From Candidatus Uhrbacteria bacterium (GTDB lineage Bacteria > Patescibacteriota > Patescibacteriia > JACQRZ01): 37,116 bases of DNA. Numbering within the stretch: the stretch's first letter is position 1; each line of letters begins with the position of its first letter. The stretch spans positions 1-37,116 of the forward strand of contig JACQSA010000018.1 in the NCBI GenBank assembly GCA_016206145.1, given 5' to 3'. Positions 20,055 through 29,998 of this stretch are shown here, piece after piece. The translations under genes and the position numbers were made by a program. The notes beneath the pieces are model-generated. The model saw only the letters and a program-made list of their open reading frames with translations. It had not been told where the DNA came from and did no database searches.

Positions 20055-21560
20055 ATGTACTACAAGACCTATCTCCTTACCTTAAGCGTACTGCTATTGA
20101 TGCTTTTTTCATACCTTCACAGTACTCCTGTATTTCCAGATCCTGACTCCTTCTATCACGCGCGCATTACTGCATTGATGGTGGAGAAAAAAAATATCAT
20201 TACTGATTTCCAGTGGCTCCCTTTCACGACCCTAAAAAAAAATTTCATTGATCATCATCTTATCTATCACCTCTTCCTCTCTCCATTTGTTGCTGTCCTA
20301 GGGCCTTTGTGGGGAATAAAAATTGCAAGCAGCTTGGCGGCGACTGCCGTGTGGATAGTATTTTGGCTGTTGGCATGGCACCTCGTACCTATTAAAAATT
20401 CGCATAAAAAAGCTGCTCTCATATCGCTCTTTACTGTAAGTCTTCTTTTTAATGAGACCTTTTTTTTGCGCATGAATCTTGAAAAAATCCCGGCAGTATC
20501 CGTCCTTTGGCTTTTTGGCGGAGTGTATTCGATCTTGTATAAAAAAACGAAGCTTGTTTTTTTTCTTTCTTTTTTTTATGTATGGTTGCATTCCGGATGG
20601 CCGCTCCTGCCATTGATTGCTCTATTGACACGCGATCGCGCCATTATTCTTGCGAGCTTTCTCGGCGCGCTTGCCGGCCTTATCATCAATCCATACTTTC
20701 CGCAAAACATTTCCTTTTATCTCATTCAAATCTACGACATCGCGATAATCAATTATCGCCACATCCTCCCTGTAGGATCTGAGTGGTATCCTCCGGGTTC
20801 AAAAATGATTATATGGAACCTTCCTGCGATTTTTTTCTACTGCATCTCAACAATTCTTCTTTTTGCTCGGCCAATATTCCCACCTTCTTGCGGCAATACA
20901 AAAAGAAGCCCGCGGGAGTGGTTTCTTTTTTGCGTGTCTACTCTTTTTTTTCTGCTCACCATAAAATCCGCTCGCCACGGTGAATACTTTGTTCCTTTTG
21001 CGACTCTGTTTGGAGCGCTTGTGATAATCCCCCATCTATACAGTATCACGGCAGAAGAAATGCAGAAAAAAATCATGGCATTTCTTTGGAGAGGATTTTA
21101 TTCAACGTTCGGTGTGCTTACATTTGCATCTCTCCTTATGATTGTGCTGTTGAATTCGCTGTGGAATGTGATTCGCACATTCACGCAAGGTTCTACGATA
21201 TATAAATATGAAGGGGCTGCCGCTTTTCTTCAAAAATTAACCAAAAAAAATGAAATCGTATTTCATGACCGGTGGGATTCAATGTATCCATTATGGTATT
21301 ACAACCAAGACAATAGGTATATTTCCGGATTTGACCCCACCTTTTTATATAAAAAAAATCCGGAGCTGTTCTGGATGTATGAACGCATCTCGCAAGGAGC
21401 AATTCAAAAAAATATCGGAGAACGCATATATTCCCTCTTTGGCGCCCGCGCGATCATGGTAGAAAAAGAAAACAAGCCCCTGCAGGCTGCTCTTAAAAAG
21501 GATGAAAGTGTAAAAAAAATGTACGAGGACAAATTCCTAGAAATTTACCAATCTTACTAG
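20055..21560 (+). CDS. STT3-like / GT-C family polytopic glycosyltransferase (putative oligosaccharyltransferase)
   Basis: N-terminal 'FPDPDSFYHARITALM' (DxD-type), 'DHHLIYHLFLSPFV', multiple TMs, C-terminal 'FHDRWDSMYPLWYYNQDNRYISGFDPTFLYKKNPELFWMYERIS'. Confidence 0.7.
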   Translation: MYYKTYLLTLSVLLLMLFSYLHSTPVFPDPDSFYHARITALMVEKKNIITDFQWLPFTTLKKNFIDHHLIYHLFLSPFVAVLGPLWGIKIASSLAATAVWIVFWLLAWHLVPIKNSHKKAALISLFTVSLLFNETFFLRMNLEKIPAVSVLWLFGGVYSILYKKTKLVFFLSFFYVWLHSGWPLLPLIALLTRDRAIILASFLGALAGLIINPYFPQNISFYLIQIYDIAIINYRHILPVGSEWYPPGSKMIIWNLPAIFFYCISTILLFARPIFPPSCGNTKRSPREWFLFCVSTLFFLLTIKSARHGEYFVPFATLFGALVIIPHLYSITAEEMQKKIMAFLWRGFYSTFGVLTFASLLMIVLLNSLWNVIRTFTQGSTIYKYEGAAAFLQKLTKKNEIVFHDRWDSMYPLWYYNQDNRYISGFDPTFLYKKNPELFWMYERISQGAIQKNIGERIYSLFGARAIMVEKENKPLQAALKKDESVKKMYEDKFLEIYQSY

Positions 21561-21575
21561 AAAGACTAAGCTACC

Positions 21576-21995
21576 TTAGACACCCCTATTTCCCCAAATA
21601 ACTCCGGATAGTGCATTGGTTACAAACCATGTAACGGCAAACGATGCAAGCACGATTGCGATGCCAATGATAGAATTTTTGATATAGCCTTTGGCAGCTG
21701 TTGTCTGTTTCTCGTCTCCTCCCGCAGTCATGTAGAGAAAACCCGCGTAGACCAAAAGGCATACCATAAAAAGCCCCAAGAATCCAAGAATAATATTAAG
21801 GATTCCCACGATAATGTCTGCAGGGTGGCGTACTTTATTCGGATCTGTAATCTGAAACGCCTTAAGAAATGTTCTCCATGCGCTTCCCTCTCCCACGACA
21901 ATATCTTTGATATTTTTTTGCGCGCTTGCTCCCTCTATGAAAGACCCTGCCGCAAAAAAAAGTGTAAGAAAAATGAAAGTAATAATGCGGTTCAT
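21576..21995 (-). CDS. VirB2/TrbC-like (T4SS_pilin-type) small two-TM protein, paralogue 1
   Basis: Signal peptide 'MNRIITFIFLTLFFAAGSFIEGASAQ'; 'ILNIILGFLGLFMVCLLVYAGFLYMTAGGDEKQTTAAKGYIKNSIIGIAIVLASFAVTWFV'. ORF extends to 22049 but the start at 21995 fits better. Confidence 0.75.
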   Translation of the reverse strand: MNRIITFIFLTLFFAAGSFIEGASAQKNIKDIVVGEGSAWRTFLKAFQITDPNKVRHPADIIVGILNIILGFLGLFMVCLLVYAGFLYMTAGGDEKQTTAAKGYIKNSIIGIAIVLASFAVTWFVTNALSGVIWGNRGV

Positions 21996-22005
21996 AAAAA
22001 AGGTG

Positions 22006-22422
22006 TTATTCCTCCTTTGTTGCAGTGCCCACAAGCTGCGTGAGGACAAAATTTGTAATTACGTATGCAGACACCAGAATAAGAATGCCTATGACTGAGC
22101 TTAAAATACGATCTCTTGCTGATTTTGTTTTCTTCTCATCGCCGCCTGCGTTCATCCACTCTACTCCCGCAAAGATCATCTGGATCACAAAATTGATTCC
22201 AAGAAACCCCAAAAAAATCTGAATAATAAGCGCAACCATTGTCGGGATATTTTGAGGAGCAATGCCTTCGCCGAACAGGGCTTTTTTTGCGTTTTGTAAT
22301 TGATCGCTCAGTGGTCCAGCGGCGCTTGCTCCAAAACCCGCAAGCACAAGCGCACTCACTACTACTCCCCCGGTAGCTATTTGTATTGCTCGATTTACTA
22401 TGTGTGATATTCGATGGAGCAT
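22006..22422 (-). CDS. VirB2/TrbC-like pilin-type protein, paralogue 2
   Basis: 'IIQIFLGFLGINFVIQMIFAGVEWMNAGGDEKKTKSARDRILSSVIGILILVSAYVITNFV'. Confidence 0.75.
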   Translation of the reverse strand: MLHRISHIVNRAIQIATGGVVVSALVLAGFGASAAGPLSDQLQNAKKALFGEGIAPQNIPTMVALIIQIFLGFLGINFVIQMIFAGVEWMNAGGDEKKTKSARDRILSSVIGILILVSAYVITNFVLTQLVGTATKEE

Positions 22423-22430
22423 ATCTTTTA

Positions 22431-22862
22431 TTATTTTGGGAATCCTGCGGATTCTTGAAGCGCGCCGATAAAAAATTCTGTTATTGCATACGCGCCCAAT
22501 ACAATCGCCATGCCCACAATCGCTTGGAACATAAGCCCCATTGCCTCTTTAACTGTCTTTTCTTCGCCTTTTGCCTCCATATATTTAAACCCGCCGTAAG
22601 TAAAGAGAATCAAAAAGATGAGGCCCAAAAGTCCGAGCGCAACTCGAATGACATCGCCCACTACTGTGCCAATGGTCCGCGTGGTGTCTATCCCCACTCG
22701 CTCGCCTACATTAGTAAGCATCACATTGATTTTGCCTCGCACGCTTCCTTCCGGCGCTTCCGTTTCTGCGGCTATCGGTAAGGCAAACAACATTGCCGCC
22801 TGCATCACGAACAGCATTGCGCACATCATCCCAACTAACATATTTTTACTTGTAAGGCTCAT
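22431..22862 (-). CDS. VirB2/TrbC-like pilin-type protein, paralogue 3
   Basis: Signal peptide plus 'VIRVALGLLGLIFLILFTYGGFKYMEAKGEEKTVKEAMGLMFQAIVGMAIVLGAYAITEFF'. Confidence 0.75.
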   Translation of the reverse strand: MSLTSKNMLVGMMCAMLFVMQAAMLFALPIAAETEAPEGSVRGKINVMLTNVGERVGIDTTRTIGTVVGDVIRVALGLLGLIFLILFTYGGFKYMEAKGEEKTVKEAMGLMFQAIVGMAIVLGAYAITEFFIGALQESAGFPK

Positions 22863-22863
22863 G

Positions 22864-23175
22864 CTATTTTATAATATTTTTGGTAAGCTCGCCAACAACG
22901 AAATTCGTAATCGCAAATGCCGCAAGGATGAGTATAAGTCCGACAACCGAGTGGAAAATAAAACCGCGAGCGGCATTCACTTTTTTTTCTTGCCCTTCCG
23001 AGAGAAGCCAGAGCATGCCTCCATACACCATGAGGCCTAAAAAAATCAAGCCCAAAACAGCGAAGAGTCCGTTTAGGACTCCTCCGACAAGCTGTGGAAC
23101 ATTTCCTTGCGTATTGAAAATATTCTCTCCGGCCTTGTTCAGGCCCGTGCCATTGATATCTAGGGCGAACTTCAT
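22864..23175 (-). CDS. VirB2/TrbC-like pilin-type protein, paralogue 4 (no obvious signal peptide)
   Basis: 'VLNGLFAVLGLIFLGLMVYGGMLWLLSEGQEKKVNAARGFIFHSVVGLILILAAFAITNFVV'. Confidence 0.72.
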   Translation of the reverse strand: MKFALDINGTGLNKAGENIFNTQGNVPQLVGGVLNGLFAVLGLIFLGLMVYGGMLWLLSEGQEKKVNAARGFIFHSVVGLILILAAFAITNFVVGELTKNIIK

Positions 23176-23186
23176 TGGACTCTAGC

Positions 23187-23582
23187 TCATCCAAGGAGCT
23201 GTTCTTCAAATGTAGTAACAACAAAGTATGCAATGCCCCATGCGGCGAGGATTAAGACCAAACCAATAAACCCCTGAATCAAAAGTTTGCGGGCTGTTTC
23301 AAGGCGCTTTTCATTGCCACCGGCAGTCATCCACATAAAACCTGCTGCCAAAATGATAACCACCGCGATCAACCCGAGGAACCCAAGAAGGATATTGAGA
23401 ACCTTAATAATAGTGTCTCGAAGGTCTTGACGGGCCTGTTGAGGAACGCTTACATTTTGGAATAAGTTTACTCCCCTTCCAAATTCTTCCACACCATAAG
23501 CAGTCGGCGCGGGCACTACTGCAATTGCCGCCATACTGAGCATCCCCATAAGAAGTGATGTCGCGAGTATTCGCTTGATCAT
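23187..23582 (-). CDS. VirB2/TrbC-like pilin-type protein, paralogue 5
   Basis: Signal peptide 'MIKRILATSLLMGMLSMAAIAVVPAPTAYG'; 'VLNILLGFLGLIAVVIILAAGFMWMTAGGNEKRLETARKLLIQGFIGLVLILAAWGIAYFVV'. Confidence 0.78.
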   Translation of the reverse strand: MIKRILATSLLMGMLSMAAIAVVPAPTAYGVEEFGRGVNLFQNVSVPQQARQDLRDTIIKVLNILLGFLGLIAVVIILAAGFMWMTAGGNEKRLETARKLLIQGFIGLVLILAAWGIAYFVVTTFEEQLLG

Positions 23583-23610
23583 ATATATTCGTTAATAAAT
23601 TATTTCCTTG

Positions 23611-23634
23611 TCATTCCTGCGTAGGCGGGAATCT
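23611..23634. repeat. REP-like intergenic palindrome
   Basis: TCATTCCTGC-GTAG-GCGGGAATCT; stem ATTCCTGC/GCGGGAAT with one G.T pair, of the widespread 'TCATTCCCGCG...GCGGGAATC' class. Confidence 0.8.
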
Positions 23635-23678
23635 AGACTATTATACCACTTCTATAAAAACCGCAATGGGGATAAAGA

Positions 23679-24164
23679 TTACGAACTATATTCAGGCTTT
23701 GAATCTCCTCCACCTGGCGCAGTACTATCCATAATTGCAGGTGGCGCGGATGCCGGAGCCGCCCCACCACCCCCACCAGGCGGTACTGTAGGCGGCAACA
23801 GAATCCCGAGCAAAAACTGCACTATGATATAACTCCCAAATATAAGCGCTAGACCCAATGCCCCCCACGTCAAGGTATCCCAACCCTGTTTGATCTTTTT
23901 CTCTTGTCCCTGCGCGGTCATCCATGTAAACCCGCCATACAGAAAAATCAAAAGCGCAACTGTTCCCACAATGCCGAATAAACCTTTAAGGATGAGATTG
24001 ACAAGCTCGGGAACATTGTCGGCAGAAATCGGATTGACTAGACACACATACTTTGATTTATCACACTCCTGCGCGGCAAAAGCTACTGACGACGACAAAA
24101 AAAACGCACACATCACTATTGCCAGCACACTCACTGCGAATTTTTGTTTTTGATTTCTGCTCAT
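23679..24164 (-). CDS. VirB2/TrbC-like pilin-type protein, paralogue 6 with Pro/Gly-rich C-terminal tail
   Basis: Signal peptide; 'ILKGLFGIVGTVALLIFLYGGFTWMTAQGQEKKIKQGWDTLTWGALGLALIFGSYIIVQFLLG' then 'PPTVPPGGGGGAAPASAPPAIMDSTAPGGGDSKPEYSS'. Confidence 0.75.
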   Translation of the reverse strand: MSRNQKQKFAVSVLAIVMCAFFLSSSVAFAAQECDKSKYVCLVNPISADNVPELVNLILKGLFGIVGTVALLIFLYGGFTWMTAQGQEKKIKQGWDTLTWGALGLALIFGSYIIVQFLLGILLPPTVPPGGGGGAAPASAPPAIMDSTAPGGGDSKPEYSS

Positions 24165-24321
24165 GGTGTTTATTGTACCACCTATACCATTTAGAGTACA
24201 GAGTATGTAAATATCCCTCGACTCACATGAGATAGCAAGAATAACCTGCTTTTTTTATGCAAAATGGGATCTGACACGGTTTTTCCACAAAAGACCAAAA
24301 CAACAAGGTTTTGCGGAGTAA

Positions 24322-24579
24322 CTATTCATACAATTGTGCATGTGTCCCAACCTGATCAAAAACAATCTCTTCCCCGCGTATTAGATATAATGCTCGATAA
24401 TCTCCCGTGATGTTTATGCTTCCGTATGCTTTATACGCTCCCTTAAGTACATGGTTGTGCAGAAGCGGATCAAAGGAATTCTTGGAAAACCGTTCGACGC
24501 GTTCTACGAGTTGTTCTCGAACGCGGGAGGGAAGTTTCTTTGCCTGCTTAAGGAAATACTTCGAATACGAGATGTTCAT
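24322..24579 (-). CDS. RelE/YafQ/ParE-superfamily toxin (putative mRNA interferase)
   Basis: 'MNISYSKYFLKQAKKLPSRVREQLVERVERFSKNSFDPLLHNHVLKGAYKAYGSINITGDYRALYLIRGEEIVFDQVGTHAQLYE'; 4-nt overlap with the upstream antitoxin. Confidence 0.88.
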   Translation of the reverse strand: MNISYSKYFLKQAKKLPSRVREQLVERVERFSKNSFDPLLHNHVLKGAYKAYGSINITGDYRALYLIRGEEIVFDQVGTHAQLYE

Positions 24580-24857
24580 CGAAGTTCGTCGCGCAAAAAG
24601 TCAACGGCTTCTTTGTTGTTGCGAAAACGATAATAATCCCCTTTTTCGAGTTGCGCGCGTGATTGAGCAAGCATTTTACGGGTCCGCGCATTTGGCACAG
24701 GCGGCATATCAAAAGTAACGCTTTCTTCCGAAGCGAAGCGACGCAATTCGTTATTCAACACTGCATTTATGCTGATACCAAGCTTCTTGGCAACCCGCAT
24801 CGCGCGATTCTTGATATGAGGATCTGTTTTTATATTGATAACGGAGTACATGTTCAT
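24576..24857 (-). CDS. RelB/DinJ-like antitoxin
   Basis: 'MNMYSVINIKTDPHIKNRAMRVAKKLGISINAVLNNELRRFASEESVTFD' (RHH) followed by a toxin-binding tail. ORF runs to 24899 but the ATG at 24857 abuts the promoter. Confidence 0.85.
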   Translation of the reverse strand: MNMYSVINIKTDPHIKNRAMRVAKKLGISINAVLNNELRRFASEESVTFDMPPVPNARTRKMLAQSRAQLEKGDYYRFRNNKEAVDFLRDELR

Positions 24858-24893
24858 ACCAAAAGTATACACTTTTGGTACTTTCAGTGTCAA
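24857..24893 (-). promoter_or_regulatory. TA operon promoter and operator
   Basis: Minus strand TTGACA (24888-24893)-N18-TATACT (24864-24869), overlapped by the inverted repeat TACCAAAAGT-ATAC-ACTTTTGGTA (24857-24880). Confidence 0.8.
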
Positions 24894-24904
24894 GAGCAAG
24901 TTTT

Positions 24905-25074
24905 AATGGTCGCAATCTGATGGGGCCTCTGCCTGTCATACAAAATGGGACCATGCATCGTTTTCCTAGAATATTTTCGCATCAGATCACAGACCCGGGT
25001 ATCCTCTTTTTGTGTAGATCGACAATCTCTTTTCTCTGTAATGGCGTTAATCTCGTTCTTTTGTGAATAGTCAT
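24905..25074 (-). pseudogene. Decayed N-terminal fragment of an IS481-like transposase (frameshifted)
   Basis: Minus strand frame 1 'MTIHKRTRLTPLQRKEIVDLHKKRIPGSVI*' (24982-25074), continuing in a shifted frame as 'CDLMRKYSRKTMHGPILYDRQRP', resembling the HTH of IS481 transposases. Confidence 0.5.
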
Positions 25075-25104
25075 ACGGTTGCCTACAGGATTTCTTACGT
25101 CTTA

Positions 25105-25418
25105 CTATTCAATACGAACCCCCGTTTTTTTTATTTCATACACAATCGGATCGGCGCTGCTTGCAAATTCTTTCACTGTAAACCCATGAGGTTCAATGCG
25201 TGTATCCACACTCATTCTTAAATCCCAAAGCAATAACCTGTTTTTATCCAAGTTCCTCTGCAATTTGTCAGAAACAACTGCGACATCAATGTCGCTCCAT
25301 ATATTTGCCTTTTTTTTGCGTGCGAGCCAAAAAGGTACATCGCAGAAAACGGATATTGCGCTTGACGCAACGCACGTGCGTAACGCTTTGCTATTTTTTT
25401 CGCTTGACTTCTTGGCAT
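25105..25418 (-). pseudogene. MNT-type nucleotidyltransferase, reading frame split at an A8 tract
   Basis: Frame 1 'MPRSQAKKIAKRYARALRQAQYPFSAMYLFGSHAK..' and, one frame away, '..KKKANIWSDIDVAVVSDKLQRNLDKNRLLLWDLRMSVDTRIEPHGFTVKEFASSADPIVYEIKKTGVRIE'; together they rebuild the GSxAxG-(N)-SDIDV signature. Break at the T8 (+) tract 25310-25317. Confidence 0.8.
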
Positions 25419-25569
25419 AGCCGTTTATACAATGAATCAATTTTAGACTTAAAAATCCTCATATACATGAGAGGTGTTTTTCGTTGTGTGAAAAATAGAG
25501 AGGTGTATGCCATTTTTCGAGTTTCGTAATTCAGAACAGAATTGGAGGTGGGGAAGCCTTTGGAGGTGA

Positions 25570-25818
25570 GAGTACGGGAATCAATCACAAAAAGCATTTC
25601 TCGATGAATGGCAGGCCAAACGTCCTCATGATTATCTTTCATGGGTCAACCAAAATGAGTCTGATGAAAAAATTGAACGACTGCGTACATGCGTGAATCG
25701 CGGGCAGCCGTTTGGTAGTAATTCATGGACGGAAAGAATAACAAAAGAGTGGATACCTGAGTCAACTTTTCGCAGAGAAGGAAGGCCGAGTAAGCAAAGA
25801 ACTAAAAACTATTCCTGA
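25570..25818 (+). pseudogene. C-terminal remnant of a REP-associated (Y1/RAYT-type) transposase
   Basis: 'FLDEWQAKRPHDYLSWVNQNESDEKIERLRTCVNRGQPFGSNSWTERITKEWIPESTFRREGRPSKQRTKNYS*' matches the typical RAYT C-terminus (WVNxP...RxxRRGxPFG...W...GRPxK); no N-terminal catalytic part found. Confidence 0.75.
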
Positions 25819-25853
25819 CACCGTTTCCACCGTTTCCACGCGGGCTCACGGAA

Positions 25854-25913
25854 GTTTCACCGACATTTTTAAGTGATAGAACCGAGGCGGTTTCACCGAC
25901 CTAGTTAAATGAT
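25854..25913. repeat. Imperfect direct repeat (24 bp, 20/24 identical, 36-bp period)
   Basis: GTTTCACCGACATTTTTAAGTGAT (25854-25877) and GTTTCACCGACCTAGTTAAATGAT (25890-25913). Confidence 0.8.
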
Positions 25914-25978
25914 TTGACACGGGGGTGTATTCGATTTCACTGATGAAAAAAAATGAGACCTAACACTGTTTTCCTTAA

Positions 25979-27025
25979 TCATAATGCTATTGGCTCCTTA
26001 ACGGTCTCACACTCTTTCCCGATAGTATAGTCTCCAGCACTAAACGGCTTACTCCAACAAACTTCCTGCTCTGTTGCCCCAACTCGATTTGTTGGAAAGG
26101 GACAGAAATAAGCAGGCGTATTTTTAATACGGACTGGAGTAGCGTTAAATTCTTCTTGTAAAAATTGCTTGCACCTTTCTAGCTTCATCCGACGAGCTAC
26201 TTTCCCACCGTCAACCTTCACTCCACAACATCCTCCCATTACTTCGCTTATATCAAGACCTCCCCCCCCGCAAAAACCATTATAACAGTTCCCTGATACA
26301 CATTCACAATCTGATTTGCATGCTTTTGCATTCGCAATGGTTCCCCTACAAGCTGTGCCTGATGGTACAGTTGGAGGAGGAGGAGTAATAATTTTTGCAG
26401 GAGCGGCAAGGGCTTTTGCGAGTTCTGATGATGACATTGCCCGGTAACAAAGGGCATCCTTATGTATTTGATACCACTGCTCGCCAGCGCTTTGAAACGC
26501 AAGCTTCCCTGAACCTCCCGTGAGCGTCACAACGATCAAGTTCACTCCGACCCATGCGCCGAATACTATTAAAAGTCCGATCACGGCATTTTTCAATGTA
26601 GTCATACCTGCCTGTATGCGTTTTTCTGTTCCCCCGGCAATCAACCATTGAAACCCGCCCCAGACAAACATCAAAAGCGCAAGACTTCCGACCACACTGA
26701 GAAGCAAGTGATATGCTGACAAGACAGTCTGGACAATACCTGAAAGGCTGTGATAACAAGATATTTCTTCCCCATCATGAATGACACTGCCACATCCGCC
26801 AATCAAAAAACCTGTGGCTCCCTTCTCTGGTCGAGATCCTTTAATCAATTCGTTATCTAAGCAATATTGAACAGCCTCAACAGGCGCTGCAAAAAAAATC
26901 AATGAAGCCGAAAAGACAATCATCGTCAATACAGATACAAGTTTCCAGCTATGAAAGAATCTGTGGCTCCCCGATCGGACCGAGGATGATACTATAGGCA
27001 TACAATCGTTCATATCAATACCCAT
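25979..27025 (-). CDS. Large pilin-type/TrbC-like protein, paralogue 7, with C-terminal Cys-rich domain
   Basis: 'SAYHLLLSVVGSLALLMFVWGGFQWLIAGGTEKRIQAGMTTLKNAVIGLLIVFGAWVGVNLIVV' matches the pilin-array core; followed by 'CRGTIANAKACKSDCECVSGNCYNGFCGGGG' and further cysteines. Confidence 0.75.
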   Translation of the reverse strand: MGIDMNDCMPIVSSSVRSGSHRFFHSWKLVSVLTMIVFSASLIFFAAPVEAVQYCLDNELIKGSRPEKGATGFLIGGCGSVIHDGEEISCYHSLSGIVQTVLSAYHLLLSVVGSLALLMFVWGGFQWLIAGGTEKRIQAGMTTLKNAVIGLLIVFGAWVGVNLIVVTLTGGSGKLAFQSAGEQWYQIHKDALCYRAMSSSELAKALAAPAKIITPPPPTVPSGTACRGTIANAKACKSDCECVSGNCYNGFCGGGGLDISEVMGGCCGVKVDGGKVARRMKLERCKQFLQEEFNATPVRIKNTPAYFCPFPTNRVGATEQEVCWSKPFSAGDYTIGKECETVKEPIAL

Positions 27026-27038
27026 TCTGGATTATTTG
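27017..27038. repeat. 22-bp direct repeat, copy 1, at the left edge of the PIN cassette
   Basis: AATACCCATTCTGGATTATTTG; identical to 27732-27753. Confidence 0.97.
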
Positions 27039-27418
27039 CTTGATTGAGTAGGAGGCGTTCCTATAGAATTTCGCAAATCAAGATTTGGAATGCTCTTAAA
27101 ATCCTTGATGTTCTTTGTGATTAGTGTGAAGCTCCACTCTAAAGCCGTTGCTGCAATAAGAAGATCAGGAAGCCGAGTTGATCGTGTTCTACCAAGTTCC
27201 CCTGCGCGTTGCGCGATACTATTGTCTACGCTCACTGGCGTCATTATGCTCATTAGATCAATCAGTGATCGAATGTCATCATCTCCTAACCCGGGATAGC
27301 GTAACGCTTCAGCGACTGTAATAGTTGAGATATAAAATTCCGTTTCCTTTGGAGCAGAGGAAAGAATATTTTCTGAGAGATGCAAGAGAAGAATATTTGT
27401 GTCAAGTAACACTCGCAT
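27032..27418 (-). CDS. PIN-domain (VapC-like) ribonuclease toxin
   Basis: 'MRVLLDTNILLLHLSEN', 'STITVAEALRYPGL', 'RLPDLLIAATALEWSFTLITKNIKDFKSIPNLDL'. Confidence 0.88.
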   Translation of the reverse strand: MRVLLDTNILLLHLSENILSSAPKETEFYISTITVAEALRYPGLGDDDIRSLIDLMSIMTPVSVDNSIAQRAGELGRTRSTRLPDLLIAATALEWSFTLITKNIKDFKSIPNLDLRNSIGTPPTQSSK

Positions 27419-27436
27419 AAAGTGGCGACAATGTCG

Positions 27437-27673
27437 CTAATTCCAATCGTTGCGAACCTTCCTCTGCCAGATAAGAATATCTTTTTCCGAATATTTATTA
27501 CGCGTTACTCCTCCCGTACGTGTAAGAATACTGTTTTTTGTACTGTAATTGCCAGAAACTGGAGAAATGCAAACAAGGCGGTCCTTTAATCGATGAAGCG
27601 CTTCATCGATATGCTCAAGTTCGCGATATATTGACTGAGACTGAATTGGTTCTTGGTGCATATTGGGTTCCAT
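27437..27673 (-). CDS. Putative cognate antitoxin of the PIN toxin (no recognised family)
   Basis: Small ORF directly upstream of the PIN gene, same strand, 18-nt gap; 'MHQEPIQSQSIYRELEHIDEALHRLKDRL...KYSEKDILIWQRKVRNDWN'. Called by position. Confidence 0.5.
   Translation of the reverse strand: MEPNMHQEPIQSQSIYRELEHIDEALHRLKDRLVCISPVSGNYSTKNSILTRTGGVTRNKYSEKDILIWQRKVRNDWN
27589..27610. repeat. Perfect 22-bp palindrome inside the putative antitoxin gene
   Basis: ATCGATGAAGC|GCTTCATCGAT, no spacer. Confidence 0.97.
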
Positions 27674-27729
27674 ATAATTCAATACTAGCAAATAACGCAG
27701 TATAAAGCAATCCACACGCACCGTTCAAC

Positions 27730-29157
27730 CTAATACCCATTCTGGATTATTTGTTTCGTTTTAGTAAGCAACCCCCCAAAAAAAGTCTTTTGTTCTTCCG
27801 GAGTGCCGCCTTTGCCAAGCAGTGCTTCGGTGATCAGGCTCGCCATGGCGCGCTCCATTGTATCCGGATTTTTTCCATAAAACCATGTTTTTGCCATCAG
27901 GAGTTGTGCCGCAAACGGATAGAGCGCATCAGCCTTTTTCTGACCCTCGATCAGATCTCGAAGCGCAGTCGGTTTGCGCGTACTCTCAAGATATTTCTGC
28001 GCTTGTTCTTTTGCAGTGGCAAACAAAAGAAAATCCCATGCATAATCTTTACGCGCGGATCTTTTTGATACGACTTCAACCCAATAATTCGCCATAGTCG
28101 CAGGAACTTCGGGATTTAATTGAGGCAACGGCACCACTCCATAGCGGATCCGCGGATTGAGTGCGCGCAGCTGGTCCAAATGATACGAATACCCAAACAT
28201 CATTGCAGTACGCCCTTGAGTGAATGCCTCAAAGCTGTCTGAAAATTTCTCATCCCATGTATACAATTCCGAAGTGGGTGAGGCAAAATCAGTATAAAAC
28301 ATCAATGCGTTTATGGAGGGGTGCACTGAATCGTCTTTGATGTAATCAGGAATCCTGTCAAAAGTAATGCCCGTAGGGCTGCTCATTTGCGCGCCATTCT
28401 GCATCATCAAGGTAGCAAGGATATCTGTCGATCGCTGCACACTGCCCGCTCCCCCGAGCGCGGCACCGGAAATTTTGATCTCGCGCGTATTGGGATCGCG
28501 GACAGTTAAGCGCCCTTCAGAAACCATATTGGTAAACTCTGTCCAGCTTCGTGGCGGAGCTCCAATGCCTGCGTTATTAAACAGGTCTTTGTTGTAAAAA
28601 AGCGCAAGCACATCGACAAAATATGGAACCCCCACAAGAACTGTTTTGCCGTCAATATTCCTTATGACATCGCTGGTTACTGCGTCAATAAATTGCTCTT
28701 GCAATTCACGAATGGTGGGCGCAGGAATATCTTGCAGTTTGATGTCTGTTTTTTTTTGAAATCCGCTTGACGTCTGAATAAAAAACGCAATCTTTCTGGT
28801 GTCAGGCACCGGCTCAATTTTGGGTTCATATTTCCCCATCCATGTATTGTGGATAGAAAAAATATCCGGTCCGCGATTTTCTGCCAAAGCATTGACTAAT
28901 TCAGACTCATATTCTTCAAATCGAAGCCGCCTATATTGGATAGTAACATTCGGATGCTTTTGTTGATATTCGGCAATAATATCCTGTATCGCTTGATCGC
29001 CATCAAACACTCGCCAATAAGTAAGTGTGACGGGCAGTTTTGCCTCTTTGAGTTCTTTAGACGACGGACCTTTTGGTTTTAAGGCGATAAGCGCTGCAAG
29101 CACCCCAAAGATTACTACAAGCGCGAGTCCTAAAATAAGCAGTATTCGATTTTGCAT
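27730..29157 (-). CDS. Extracellular solute-binding protein (family 1, sugar-type ABC transporter SBP), membrane-anchored
   Basis: N-terminal TM 'MQNRILLILGLALVVIFGVLAALIAL'; 'VTLTYWRVFDGDQAIQDIIAEYQQKHPNVTIQYRRL', 'GVPYFVDVLALFYNKDLFNNAGIGAPPRSWTEF'. Confidence 0.9.
   Translation of the reverse strand: MQNRILLILGLALVVIFGVLAALIALKPKGPSSKELKEAKLPVTLTYWRVFDGDQAIQDIIAEYQQKHPNVTIQYRRLRFEEYESELVNALAENRGPDIFSIHNTWMGKYEPKIEPVPDTRKIAFFIQTSSGFQKKTDIKLQDIPAPTIRELQEQFIDAVTSDVIRNIDGKTVLVGVPYFVDVLALFYNKDLFNNAGIGAPPRSWTEFTNMVSEGRLTVRDPNTREIKISGAALGGAGSVQRSTDILATLMMQNGAQMSSPTGITFDRIPDYIKDDSVHPSINALMFYTDFASPTSELYTWDEKFSDSFEAFTQGRTAMMFGYSYHLDQLRALNPRIRYGVVPLPQLNPEVPATMANYWVEVVSKRSARKDYAWDFLLFATAKEQAQKYLESTRKPTALRDLIEGQKKADALYPFAAQLLMAKTWFYGKNPDTMERAMASLITEALLGKGGTPEEQKTFFGGLLTKTKQIIQNGY
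27732..27753. repeat. 22-bp direct repeat, copy 2, at the right edge of the PIN cassette (3' end of the SBP gene)
   Basis: AATACCCATTCTGGATTATTTG; encodes the last residues ...QIIQNGY of the SBP. Confidence 0.97.
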
Positions 29158-29161
29158 ATGA

Positions 29162-29998
29162 TTAGTATATCCCAAGCGCTGCAAATGCACCACCGAGCGC
29201 ACCGATCGTGATAAGAGGAAGCGCAGGAATAGGATGATGGCGGCTTACAATCAAAAGATGATTCAGTGTGATGCCCACCAGCATGCCTGCAACGCTCGCG
29301 ATTGCCGCAGGGAGGCTTGCGCGCACAAGGCTCGCAGAAAAGATCATGGGCAGTACGATATCCCCTCCTCCAACGATTAAAAAGCCGCTGCCAGGCTGCA
29401 CGTCGCGGATCTGCGCAAAATACTTTTTCACTGTATCCGGAACAAACAACGCAAAACTTGCTTGGCGCCGTATCAATTCATGCGCAAGAAGGATCATGTG
29501 CTTTGTAATGTACACAGCAATGATGTCATATACGGATAATGCCAAAAGGAGAAGCGCGGCAAACAGAAAATGAAACTGCAGTCCGAATATCGGGCCAATG
29601 CCCACGGCGGCTGCAATGACAACCATATTATGCACCCATACGGCAGGAAGAAGAAACAAAGCGCATAAAAACAGTGCGGAAACAAGCAGAGAAAGCTCGG
29701 GCGGAAACACTAAAAGAAAAAGCTTCATAAGTCCAAGAAAAACCACAAACAAAAACAAAAACCGATACAATGCACGCCCTTTATATAAATGGAGGAGAAT
29801 AAGGAGCGCGGCTGTTGCTGTAAAAAAGAGGATAAGAAACTGAAAAAAAACGGTTTGCGCTGATTCGGTTTCCCAAAAAAGAAACGGGTCTGTGGTCACA
29901 AATACAGGGGCTTGAGATGCGATAAACACTGCCGTGCCCTGCGCAAGCCCGAAAAGTGCAAGTGTGGAAAAAAGCAATGAGAGGCGAAGGCGAGTCAT
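29162..29998 (-). CDS. Presenilin/SPP-family intramembrane aspartyl protease
   Basis: Polytopic; catalytic motifs in order: YD in 'LALSVYDIIAVY', GxGD in 'FLIVGGGDIVLPMIF', PAL in 'HPIPALPLI'. Confidence 0.87.
   Translation of the reverse strand: MTRLRLSLLFSTLALFGLAQGTAVFIASQAPVFVTTDPFLFWETESAQTVFFQFLILFFTATAALLILLHLYKGRALYRFLFLFVVFLGLMKLFLLVFPPELSLLVSALFLCALFLLPAVWVHNMVVIAAAVGIGPIFGLQFHFLFAALLLLALSVYDIIAVYITKHMILLAHELIRRQASFALFVPDTVKKYFAQIRDVQPGSGFLIVGGGDIVLPMIFSASLVRASLPAAIASVAGMLVGITLNHLLIVSRHHPIPALPLITIGALGGAFAALGIY

What the first reader, a model, noticed from the sequence alone, without database searches (positions are those of the whole stretch)
21576..27025. Expanded array of seven divergent VirB2/TrbC-like pilin paralogues with no visible secretion machinery
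Six consecutive minus-strand genes, and a seventh after an interruption, share one architecture: secretion signal (absent in paralogue 4), TM1 with G[FL][LV]G, [YAW][GA]G[FVM]x[WY][ML]xxxGxEK[KR] at the turn, then TM2 with [IV][IVL]G[IL]x[IL]V..[AG][ASY]. They are too divergent to be recent duplicates, and no VirB4/VirB6/VirD4-type gene occurs in the window. This could be a heteropolymeric surface filament or pore family relevant to an episymbiotic lifestyle. The pilin family itself is known; what the many-paralogue array does is the open question.
Basis: partly seen in the sequence, partly recalled or inferred. Interest (0 to 1): 0.75.

Follow-up and report, generated by a model that had tools for sequence, protein, structure and literature searches.

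The report
Ordered seven-pilin operon in Uhrbacteria relative
Seven related but clearly different pilin genes sit in a row in a tiny, probably host-dependent bacterium; such rows are already known from its phylum, but here the same pilins occur in the same order across a whole class of these bacteria, which suggests that each one is a fixed part of a single surface machine rather than an interchangeable variant.

Summary
Seven minus-strand genes (21576-27025) all pass Pfam's cut-off for PF18895 T4SS_pilin. The genome belongs to a relative of Candidatus Uhrbacteria (Patescibacteria). "No secretion machinery" is true only of the window: the genome carries VirB4, a TrsD-like protein, PrgI/VirB3 and a 796-aa partner on contig C58, a VirB6-like gene on C39, a VirD4-like hit on C35, and three more pilins on C5. 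Pilin arrays of 2-11 genes with about 25% identity were published for Patescibacteria in 2025 (PMC12102498), so the kind is known.

What the comparison adds: the paralogues are orthologous by position. In 10 genomes from 8 genera, gene order agrees in 459 of 462 comparisons (shuffled 0.50, never above 0.61). The order holds across the class (372:32) but not in other classes of the phylum (220:204). A second, virB4-linked pilin locus behaves oppositely: it duplicates within lineages, and its pilins are often fused to wall-hydrolase-type domains.

Best reading: a heteromeric T4SS pilus, or channel-lining assembly, with specialised subunits, built by remotely encoded machinery. Antigenic or host-range variation, the published suggestion, fits this array poorly. 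Polymerisation, function and substrate remain inferred.

The parts
   Evidence: PF18895 8.8e-9; orthologue present in 10 genomes, first gene of the array; tail not modelled confidently
23679..24164 (-). pilin A2 (group g2), 161 aa, Gly/Pro-rich tail
   Evidence: PF18895 4.4e-10 and PF04956 9.6e-9; orthologues in 10 genomes
23187..23582 (-). pilin A3 (group g3), 131 aa; among the best conserved and the most often tandemly duplicated group, candidate major subunit
   Evidence: PF18895 9e-9, NF045849 40.6 bits over cut-off 40; 85-88% core identity to the two closest relatives; AF2 hairpin
22864..23175 (-). pilin A4 (group g4), 103 aa, no signal peptide
   Evidence: PF18895 6.6e-7; orthologues in 10 genomes; N-termini compared
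22431..22862 (-). pilin A5 (group g5), 143 aa
   Evidence: PF18895 5.3e-6; group in 7 of 10 genomes
22006..22422 (-). pilin A6, 138 aa
   Evidence: PF18895 4.6e-7; clear orthologues in G003 and G004
21576..21995 (-). pilin A7, 139 aa (start at ATG 21995)
   Evidence: PF18895 4e-8; clear orthologues in G003 and G004
27730..29202 (-). extracellular solute-binding protein (PF01547), upstream of the array in all 10 genomes where the array start is seen
   Evidence: orthologues
29162..29998 (-). presenilin/signal-peptide-peptidase-type GxGD intramembrane protease (PF06550), upstream of the SBP throughout the family
   Evidence: PF06550 2.9e-20, all 9 aligned members match; invariant YD, GGGD and PALP-type motifs; archaeal PSH 4hyc 8.6e-21
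24322..24899 (-). inserted toxin-antitoxin pair (YafQ/ParE-like toxin, RelB antitoxin) interrupting the array; not part of it
   Evidence: absent between the orthologous pilins of G003 and G004
20055..21560 (+). unannotated polytopic protein converging on the array end, with a GT-C-like 'FPDPDSFYHAR' motif; association only partial
   Evidence: similar gene found in the array-A loci of G001, G003, G004, G005 and G006; no Pfam or PDB match

Best explanation
The array is the pilin operon of the genome's own type IV secretion system, encoded away from the rest of the machine. Each paralogue is a specialised, non-interchangeable subunit of one VirB2-like heteromeric assembly: a pilus, or the subunit ring or channel at its base. 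Shown by sequence: family, hairpin, gene set, conserved order, presence of the rest of the T4SS in the genome. Inferred: most subunits enter the membrane through Sec, with the loop in the cytoplasm and the termini outside; the VirB4/PrgI/VirB6 complex extracts and polymerises them; A3 is the main building block; A1, with its large outside tail, is a tip, cap or anchor; the other locus supplies wall-hydrolase-tipped pilins that open the cell wall. In these presumed episymbionts the device would contact the host cell and move protein or DNA.
For: All seven pass PF18895. VirB4, PrgI, TrsD-like and a 796-aa partner lie on C58, the VirB6-like gene on C39, a VirD4-like hit on C35; relatives have VirB6-like, 796-like, PrgI, TrsD, VirB4 and a 203-aa gene in that order. 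Order of reciprocal best hits across genera 459 concordant: 3 discordant, shuffles mean 0.50, maximum 0.61; class-wide 372:32, and no signal in other classes, 220:204. Groups g1-g4 occur in 10 of 10 genomes. Tree: g1, g2, g3 each one side of a branch; the genome label needs 62 changes in array A but only 11 in the other locus. T4SS pilins are essential for epibiotic growth in Southlakia epibionticum (PMC10633639).
Against: No direct evidence that the proteins polymerise, meet one another, or use this T4SS; array and virB4 are unlinked (about 575 kb apart on one contig in G016). Conserved order could reflect co-expression of several separate homopolymers. Pfam membership rests on a 60-70-residue hairpin. 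Foldseek and a PDB profile search found no solved pilin.
Confidence: 0.55

Rival explanations
1. Variation store: the paralogues are alternative pilins, diversified to evade recognition or widen host range, as proposed for Patescibacteria arrays by analogy with Bartonella and Anaplasma.
For: Published suggestion for such arrays (PMC12102498); low identity within the array; lineage-specific extra copies in G001, G005, G010; toxin-antitoxin insertions show that the locus tolerates change.
Against: Variation by turnover or conversion should make paralogues cluster by genome. They cluster by position: 62 genome changes on the tree against 11 for the other locus, order kept across the class. That behaviour does fit the virB4-linked locus.
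Confidence: 0.12
2. Several separate devices: each paralogue forms its own homopolymer (different pili, rings or pores) used at different times, co-expressed from one operon.
For: Different tails and one member without signal peptide; nothing shows physical contact between paralogues.
Against: Only one virB4 locus per genome was found to serve up to 11 pilins; fixed gene order and a core set of four in every genome argue for joint use.
Confidence: 0.18
3. DNA-import (Ced/Ted-like) apparatus: the T4SS and its pilins bring in host DNA or nucleotides rather than export effectors.
For: Archaeal Ced/Ted systems reduce to VirB4, VirB6 and VirB2-like pilins, and CedA1 is used without signal-peptide cleavage (PMC9905601), as in signal-less A4; Patescibacteria generally cannot make nucleotides and relaxases are rare (PMC10633639, PMC12102498).
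Against: The S. epibionticum T4SS was read as a delivery device in the same study that showed natural competence (PMC10633639); no Ced-specific gene was tested or found; relaxase not searched here.
Confidence: 0.08
4. Not a filament: the hairpin is a generic membrane anchor or assembly module, and the array proteins are membrane scaffolds.
For: In the second locus the same hairpin carries amidase, NlpC, SLT, VanY and C39 domains; T4SS_pilin hits also lie in open frames of 2000-3400 aa.
Against: Six of the seven array members are little more than the hairpin, like known VirB2 proteins; two reach TrbC/VirB2 or Mbov_0395 pilin cut-offs; series of such pilins are essential T4SS genes in S. epibionticum (PMC10633639).
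Confidence: 0.07

Closest known systems
VirB2 arrays of Patescibacteria (Quinonero-Coronel et al. 2025, PMC12102498)
   Same: Same Pfam family, 2-11 tandem pilins, about 25% mean identity, sometimes interrupted by another gene, not always near virB4; VirB4 of MPF-FATA relationship present in the genome.
   Different: The paper treats the arrays as highly variable and suggests host-range or antigenic variation; in the parts read here it does not report positional orthology, the class-wide fixed order, the contrast with a second hydrolase-fused locus, or a linked presenilin-type protease.
T4SS pilin series of Southlakia epibionticum (Wang et al. 2023, PMC10633639)
   Same: Series of T4SS pilins in an episymbiotic Patescibacterium; T4SS close to Gram-positive conjugation systems but with pilins.
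   Different: There the pilins lie inside the T4SS gene cluster and are shown essential; here array and virB4 cluster are far apart and nothing is tested by experiment. In sampled genomes of other classes the class-specific order was not found.
Archaeal Ced/Ted pilins CedA1 and TedC (PMC9905601)
   Same: Small two- or three-helix VirB2-type pilins with VirB4 and VirB6 partners; CedA1 is exported without cleavage, like signal-less A4.
   Different: One pilin type forms each solved filament, no array; no sequence match was found here.
Mbov_0395 / ICE pilin-like conjugal transfer protein (NCBIfam NF045849)
   Same: Best NCBIfam match of A2-A7; A3 passes its cut-off.
   Different: A model of a mycoplasma conjugative-element protein; most array members fall below its cut-off.

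Membership tests
PF18895 T4SS_pilin | whole-protein score above Pfam's gathering cut-off (26.6 bits) | tested here: met
   all seven, 26.9-39.9 bits
PF18895 T4SS_pilin | two-helix hairpin joined by a short loop | tested here: met
   AF2 of 23187-23582: helices 48-85 and 91-130; hydropathy of all seven
PF04956 TrbC/VirB2 | score above 27.9 bits | tested here: not met
   only 23679-24164 passes (35.8 bits); 23187-23582 has 18.8; the others give no match
[quoted passage not shown]
   7 genes, core identity 25-43%
VirB2 arrays of Patescibacteria | VirB4 of the patescibacterial T4SS present in the genome | tested here: met
   C58:4477-6381, with PrgI and TrsD-like genes
Patescibacterial T4SS (MPF-FATA-like) | VirB6-like membrane protein | tested here: met
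   C39:30-3575, orthologous to genes next to the virB4 cluster in relatives, three of which show weak, below-cut-off TrbL/VirB6 matches
Patescibacterial T4SS (MPF-FATA-like) | VirD4-type coupling protein | tested here: inconclusive
   PF02534 hit 25.3 bits (cut-off 20.1) on C35, partial profile coverage
Conjugative T4SS | relaxase | not tested
   no relaxase search was made; rare in Patescibacteria (PMC12102498)
Conjugative-type pilus | subunits polymerise into an extracellular filament | not testable with these tools
   needs microscopy or proteomics
Antigenically variable pilin family | paralogues turn over, convert or cluster by genome | tested here: not met
   array A clusters by position, not genome; the virB4-linked locus does cluster by genome

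The most novel reading that the evidence does not exclude
A class-specific T4SS pilus in these episymbiont-type bacteria is a true heteropolymer with at least four dedicated subunit types encoded in a fixed gene order, combined with a second set of pilins whose outside ends are swappable cell-wall hydrolases; in the Uhrbacteria lineage its subunits or their signal peptides are processed by a presenilin-type intramembrane protease encoded just upstream.
Probability: 0.25. Interest if true: 0.8.

Novelty: new member of a known kind. Interest (0 to 1): 0.5.

Why it matters
Solved conjugative-type pili are described with one pilin type each (PMC9905601 compares six). An array whose paralogues keep identity and order over a whole class points to division of labour among subunits, and makes the open question (variation or specialised parts?) directly testable in any cultivated or enriched member. 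The contrast with the second, virB4-linked locus, where pilins duplicate within lineages and carry wall-hydrolase-type domains of several unrelated families, also offers a possible answer to why these bacteria mostly lack a VirB1 homologue.

Tried and rejected
Foldseek of the pilin model against PDB: only helical-hairpin noise, no pilin. PDB profile search with the pilin alignment: no match. AF2 of pilin A1: tail mostly below pLDDT 50, so no fold search. Promoter and terminator scan: no more sites than in shuffled sequence. Pfam and PDB searches for the STT3-like neighbour: nothing, so glycosylation is not claimed; N-x-S/T sites occur in only three of the seven pilins. Presenilin-type protease as a general T4SS partner: rejected, because outside the family it does not neighbour pilins in the 12 class genomes that have it. 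Phylum-wide fixed order: rejected (220:204), which also serves as a negative control for the method. Own-genome VirB6 by Pfam TrbL alone: not detected, found with a relative's protein. Literature: no paper with Uhrbacteria, pilin and type IV secretion together, and none relevant linking presenilin-type proteases to Patescibacteria.
Full report
OBSERVATION. The seven minus-strand ORFs are present as described. Each passes Pfam's curated cut-off for PF18895 T4SS_pilin, 26.9-39.9 bits against 26.6. The best NCBIfam model for six of them is the Mbov_0395 pilin-like conjugal transfer protein; only 23187-23582 reaches its cut-off. Transcription order is A1 (25979-27025), A2 (23679-24164), A3 (23187-23582), A4 (22864-23175), A5 (22431-22862), A6 (22006-22422), A7 (21576-21995). 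A3 to A7 are separated by only 1-11 bases, counting A7 from its likely ATG. Core hairpins are 25-43% identical, mean 34%. A4 lacks a signal peptide, as do its orthologues in G003 and G004. The gap between A2 and A1 holds a RelB/YafQ-type toxin-antitoxin pair; in G003 and G004 the two pilins are adjacent, so it is an insertion.

ORGANISM AND MACHINERY. The closest named relatives of A3 are Candidatus Uhrbacteria MAGs, 65% and 59% identical. The genome is 922 kb in 61 contigs, 95% complete. The window lacks T4SS genes but the genome does not. C58 encodes VirB4 (P-loop_TraG 1e-29), a TrsD-like protein, PrgI/VirB3 (3.4e-9), a 796-aa and a 203-aa protein. C39 ends inside or just after a VirB6-like gene, orthologous to the gene beside this cluster in relatives, where weak TrbL/VirB6 matches fall. 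A VirD4-like match is on C35. Three more hairpin proteins lie on C5, one carrying an Amidase_2 domain.

TWO PILIN LOCI WITH OPPOSITE EVOLUTION. All 11 genomes of the family have PF18895 proteins. Ten show array A, the window array, with 7-11 genes. All 11 have a second set (locus B) of 1-5 mostly longer proteins, which lies about 9-18 kb from virB4 in the seven relatives whose contigs allow the measurement. In array A the order of reciprocal best hits between genera is concordant in 459 of 462 cases; 1000 shuffles average 0.50 and never exceed 0.61. Groups g1 to g4 are found in all ten genomes. On an IQ-TREE phylogeny g1, g2 and g3 are each one side of a branch with support 99/80, 96/77 and 84/90; g4 and g5 are less clean, as expected from 67 columns. 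The genome label changes 62 times across array A members but only 11 times across locus B members, where the minimum is 10. Groups were first assigned on a FastTree run of the same data, so their monophyly is partly circular; the order test and the label counts do not use them.

HOW FAR THE ORDER REACHES. In 12 genomes from other families of the same class, picked for having a cluster of PF18895 hits, the order again agrees with the window's family, 372 against 32, with 0 of 1000 shuffles as high. The pooled result is strong; single genomes with short arrays (G031, G012) are not significant alone. The recurring pattern is a g1-like gene, often C-tailed, then g2, g3, then g4/g5-like genes. In arrays from other classes of the phylum there is no agreement, 220 against 204. 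Fixed order is therefore a property of the class, and the test does not return it everywhere. virB4 is present in all 12 class genomes and unlinked from the array: about 575 kb apart on one contig in G016 and about 220 kb in G023.

LOCUS B. Of 36 locus-B proteins, the tails match Amidase_2 (3), NlpC/P60 (2), Peptidase_C39 (3), SLT transglycosylase (1), VanY (1) and, below cut-off, 3D (2). At least one member above cut-off is found in 8 of the 11 genomes. This could replace the missing VirB1 function noted in PMC12102498; that link is inference.

NEIGHBOURS. Upstream of A1 in all ten genomes lie a solute-binding protein and a presenilin/SPP-type GxGD protease (PF06550 in all nine aligned members, archaeal PSH 4hyc at 8.6e-21, invariant YD, GGGD and PALP-type motifs). 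The neighbouring genes further out change, which argues for a functional link; but outside the family the protease does not sit near pilins, so any role in pilin processing would be lineage-specific. It is a hypothesis.

MECHANISM. Steps shown: pilin family, hairpin, gene set, order, co-occurrence with a T4SS. Steps inferred: Sec export of most subunits, extraction and polymerisation by VirB4/PrgI/VirB6, joint use in one assembly, A3 as main subunit (among the best conserved groups and the most often duplicated), A1 as tip, cap or anchor, and use against or with a host cell. Essentiality of T4SS pilins is shown only in Southlakia epibionticum (PMC10633639). DNA import, separate homopolymers, variation store and membrane scaffold are kept as rivals.

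NOVELTY. Patescibacterial pilin arrays are published (PMC12102498), so the array is a new member of a known kind. The positional orthology, its class-wide reach, the contrast between the two loci, the hydrolase-fused pilins and the linked protease were not found in the papers searched and read; most subscription journals are not in that library.

Noticed in passing
L115:4438-8307 (G006 C22:37437-41306); also G003 C7 and G010 C9: VirB4 is interrupted near its P-loop by an intein: LAGLIDADG_3 and Intein_splicing domains match in G006; G003 and G010 have the same split match in frames of 1244-1299 aa.
   Followed up: partly
window 24322-24899 and 27032-27721; G005 C1:239597-240192; G006 C32:6809-7457: Toxin-antitoxin modules recur inside or beside the pilin array at different positions: the RelB/YafQ pair of the window has a 69-72% identical copy inside the G005 array, and the PIN module a 72% identical copy inside the G006 array.
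   Followed up: partly
L015:9491-10465, L076:4137-5195, L082:6860-8080, L074:6312-7331 and others: T4SS_pilin-type hairpins fused to peptidoglycan-hydrolase or papain-like domains of at least five families in a virB4-linked locus, duplicated within lineages.
   Followed up: yes
window 29162-29998: A bacterial presenilin/SPP-type intramembrane protease, single copy in the family; in other genomes of the class it is patchy and in several lies near secY and ribosomal-protein-like genes.
   Followed up: partly
G004 C19:17928-26783 and open frames of 2000-3400 aa in G016, G030, G035: Very large open reading frames: several contain a T4SS_pilin match, and one of 2951 aa lies next to the VirB6-like gene in G004; possible giant surface proteins of the T4SS.
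   Followed up: no
L014:3869-4480 (C58): 203-aa protein downstream of virB4, conserved in relatives, one apparent membrane helix plus a small soluble domain, no Pfam match; a candidate for the missing VirB8-like subunit.
   Followed up: no
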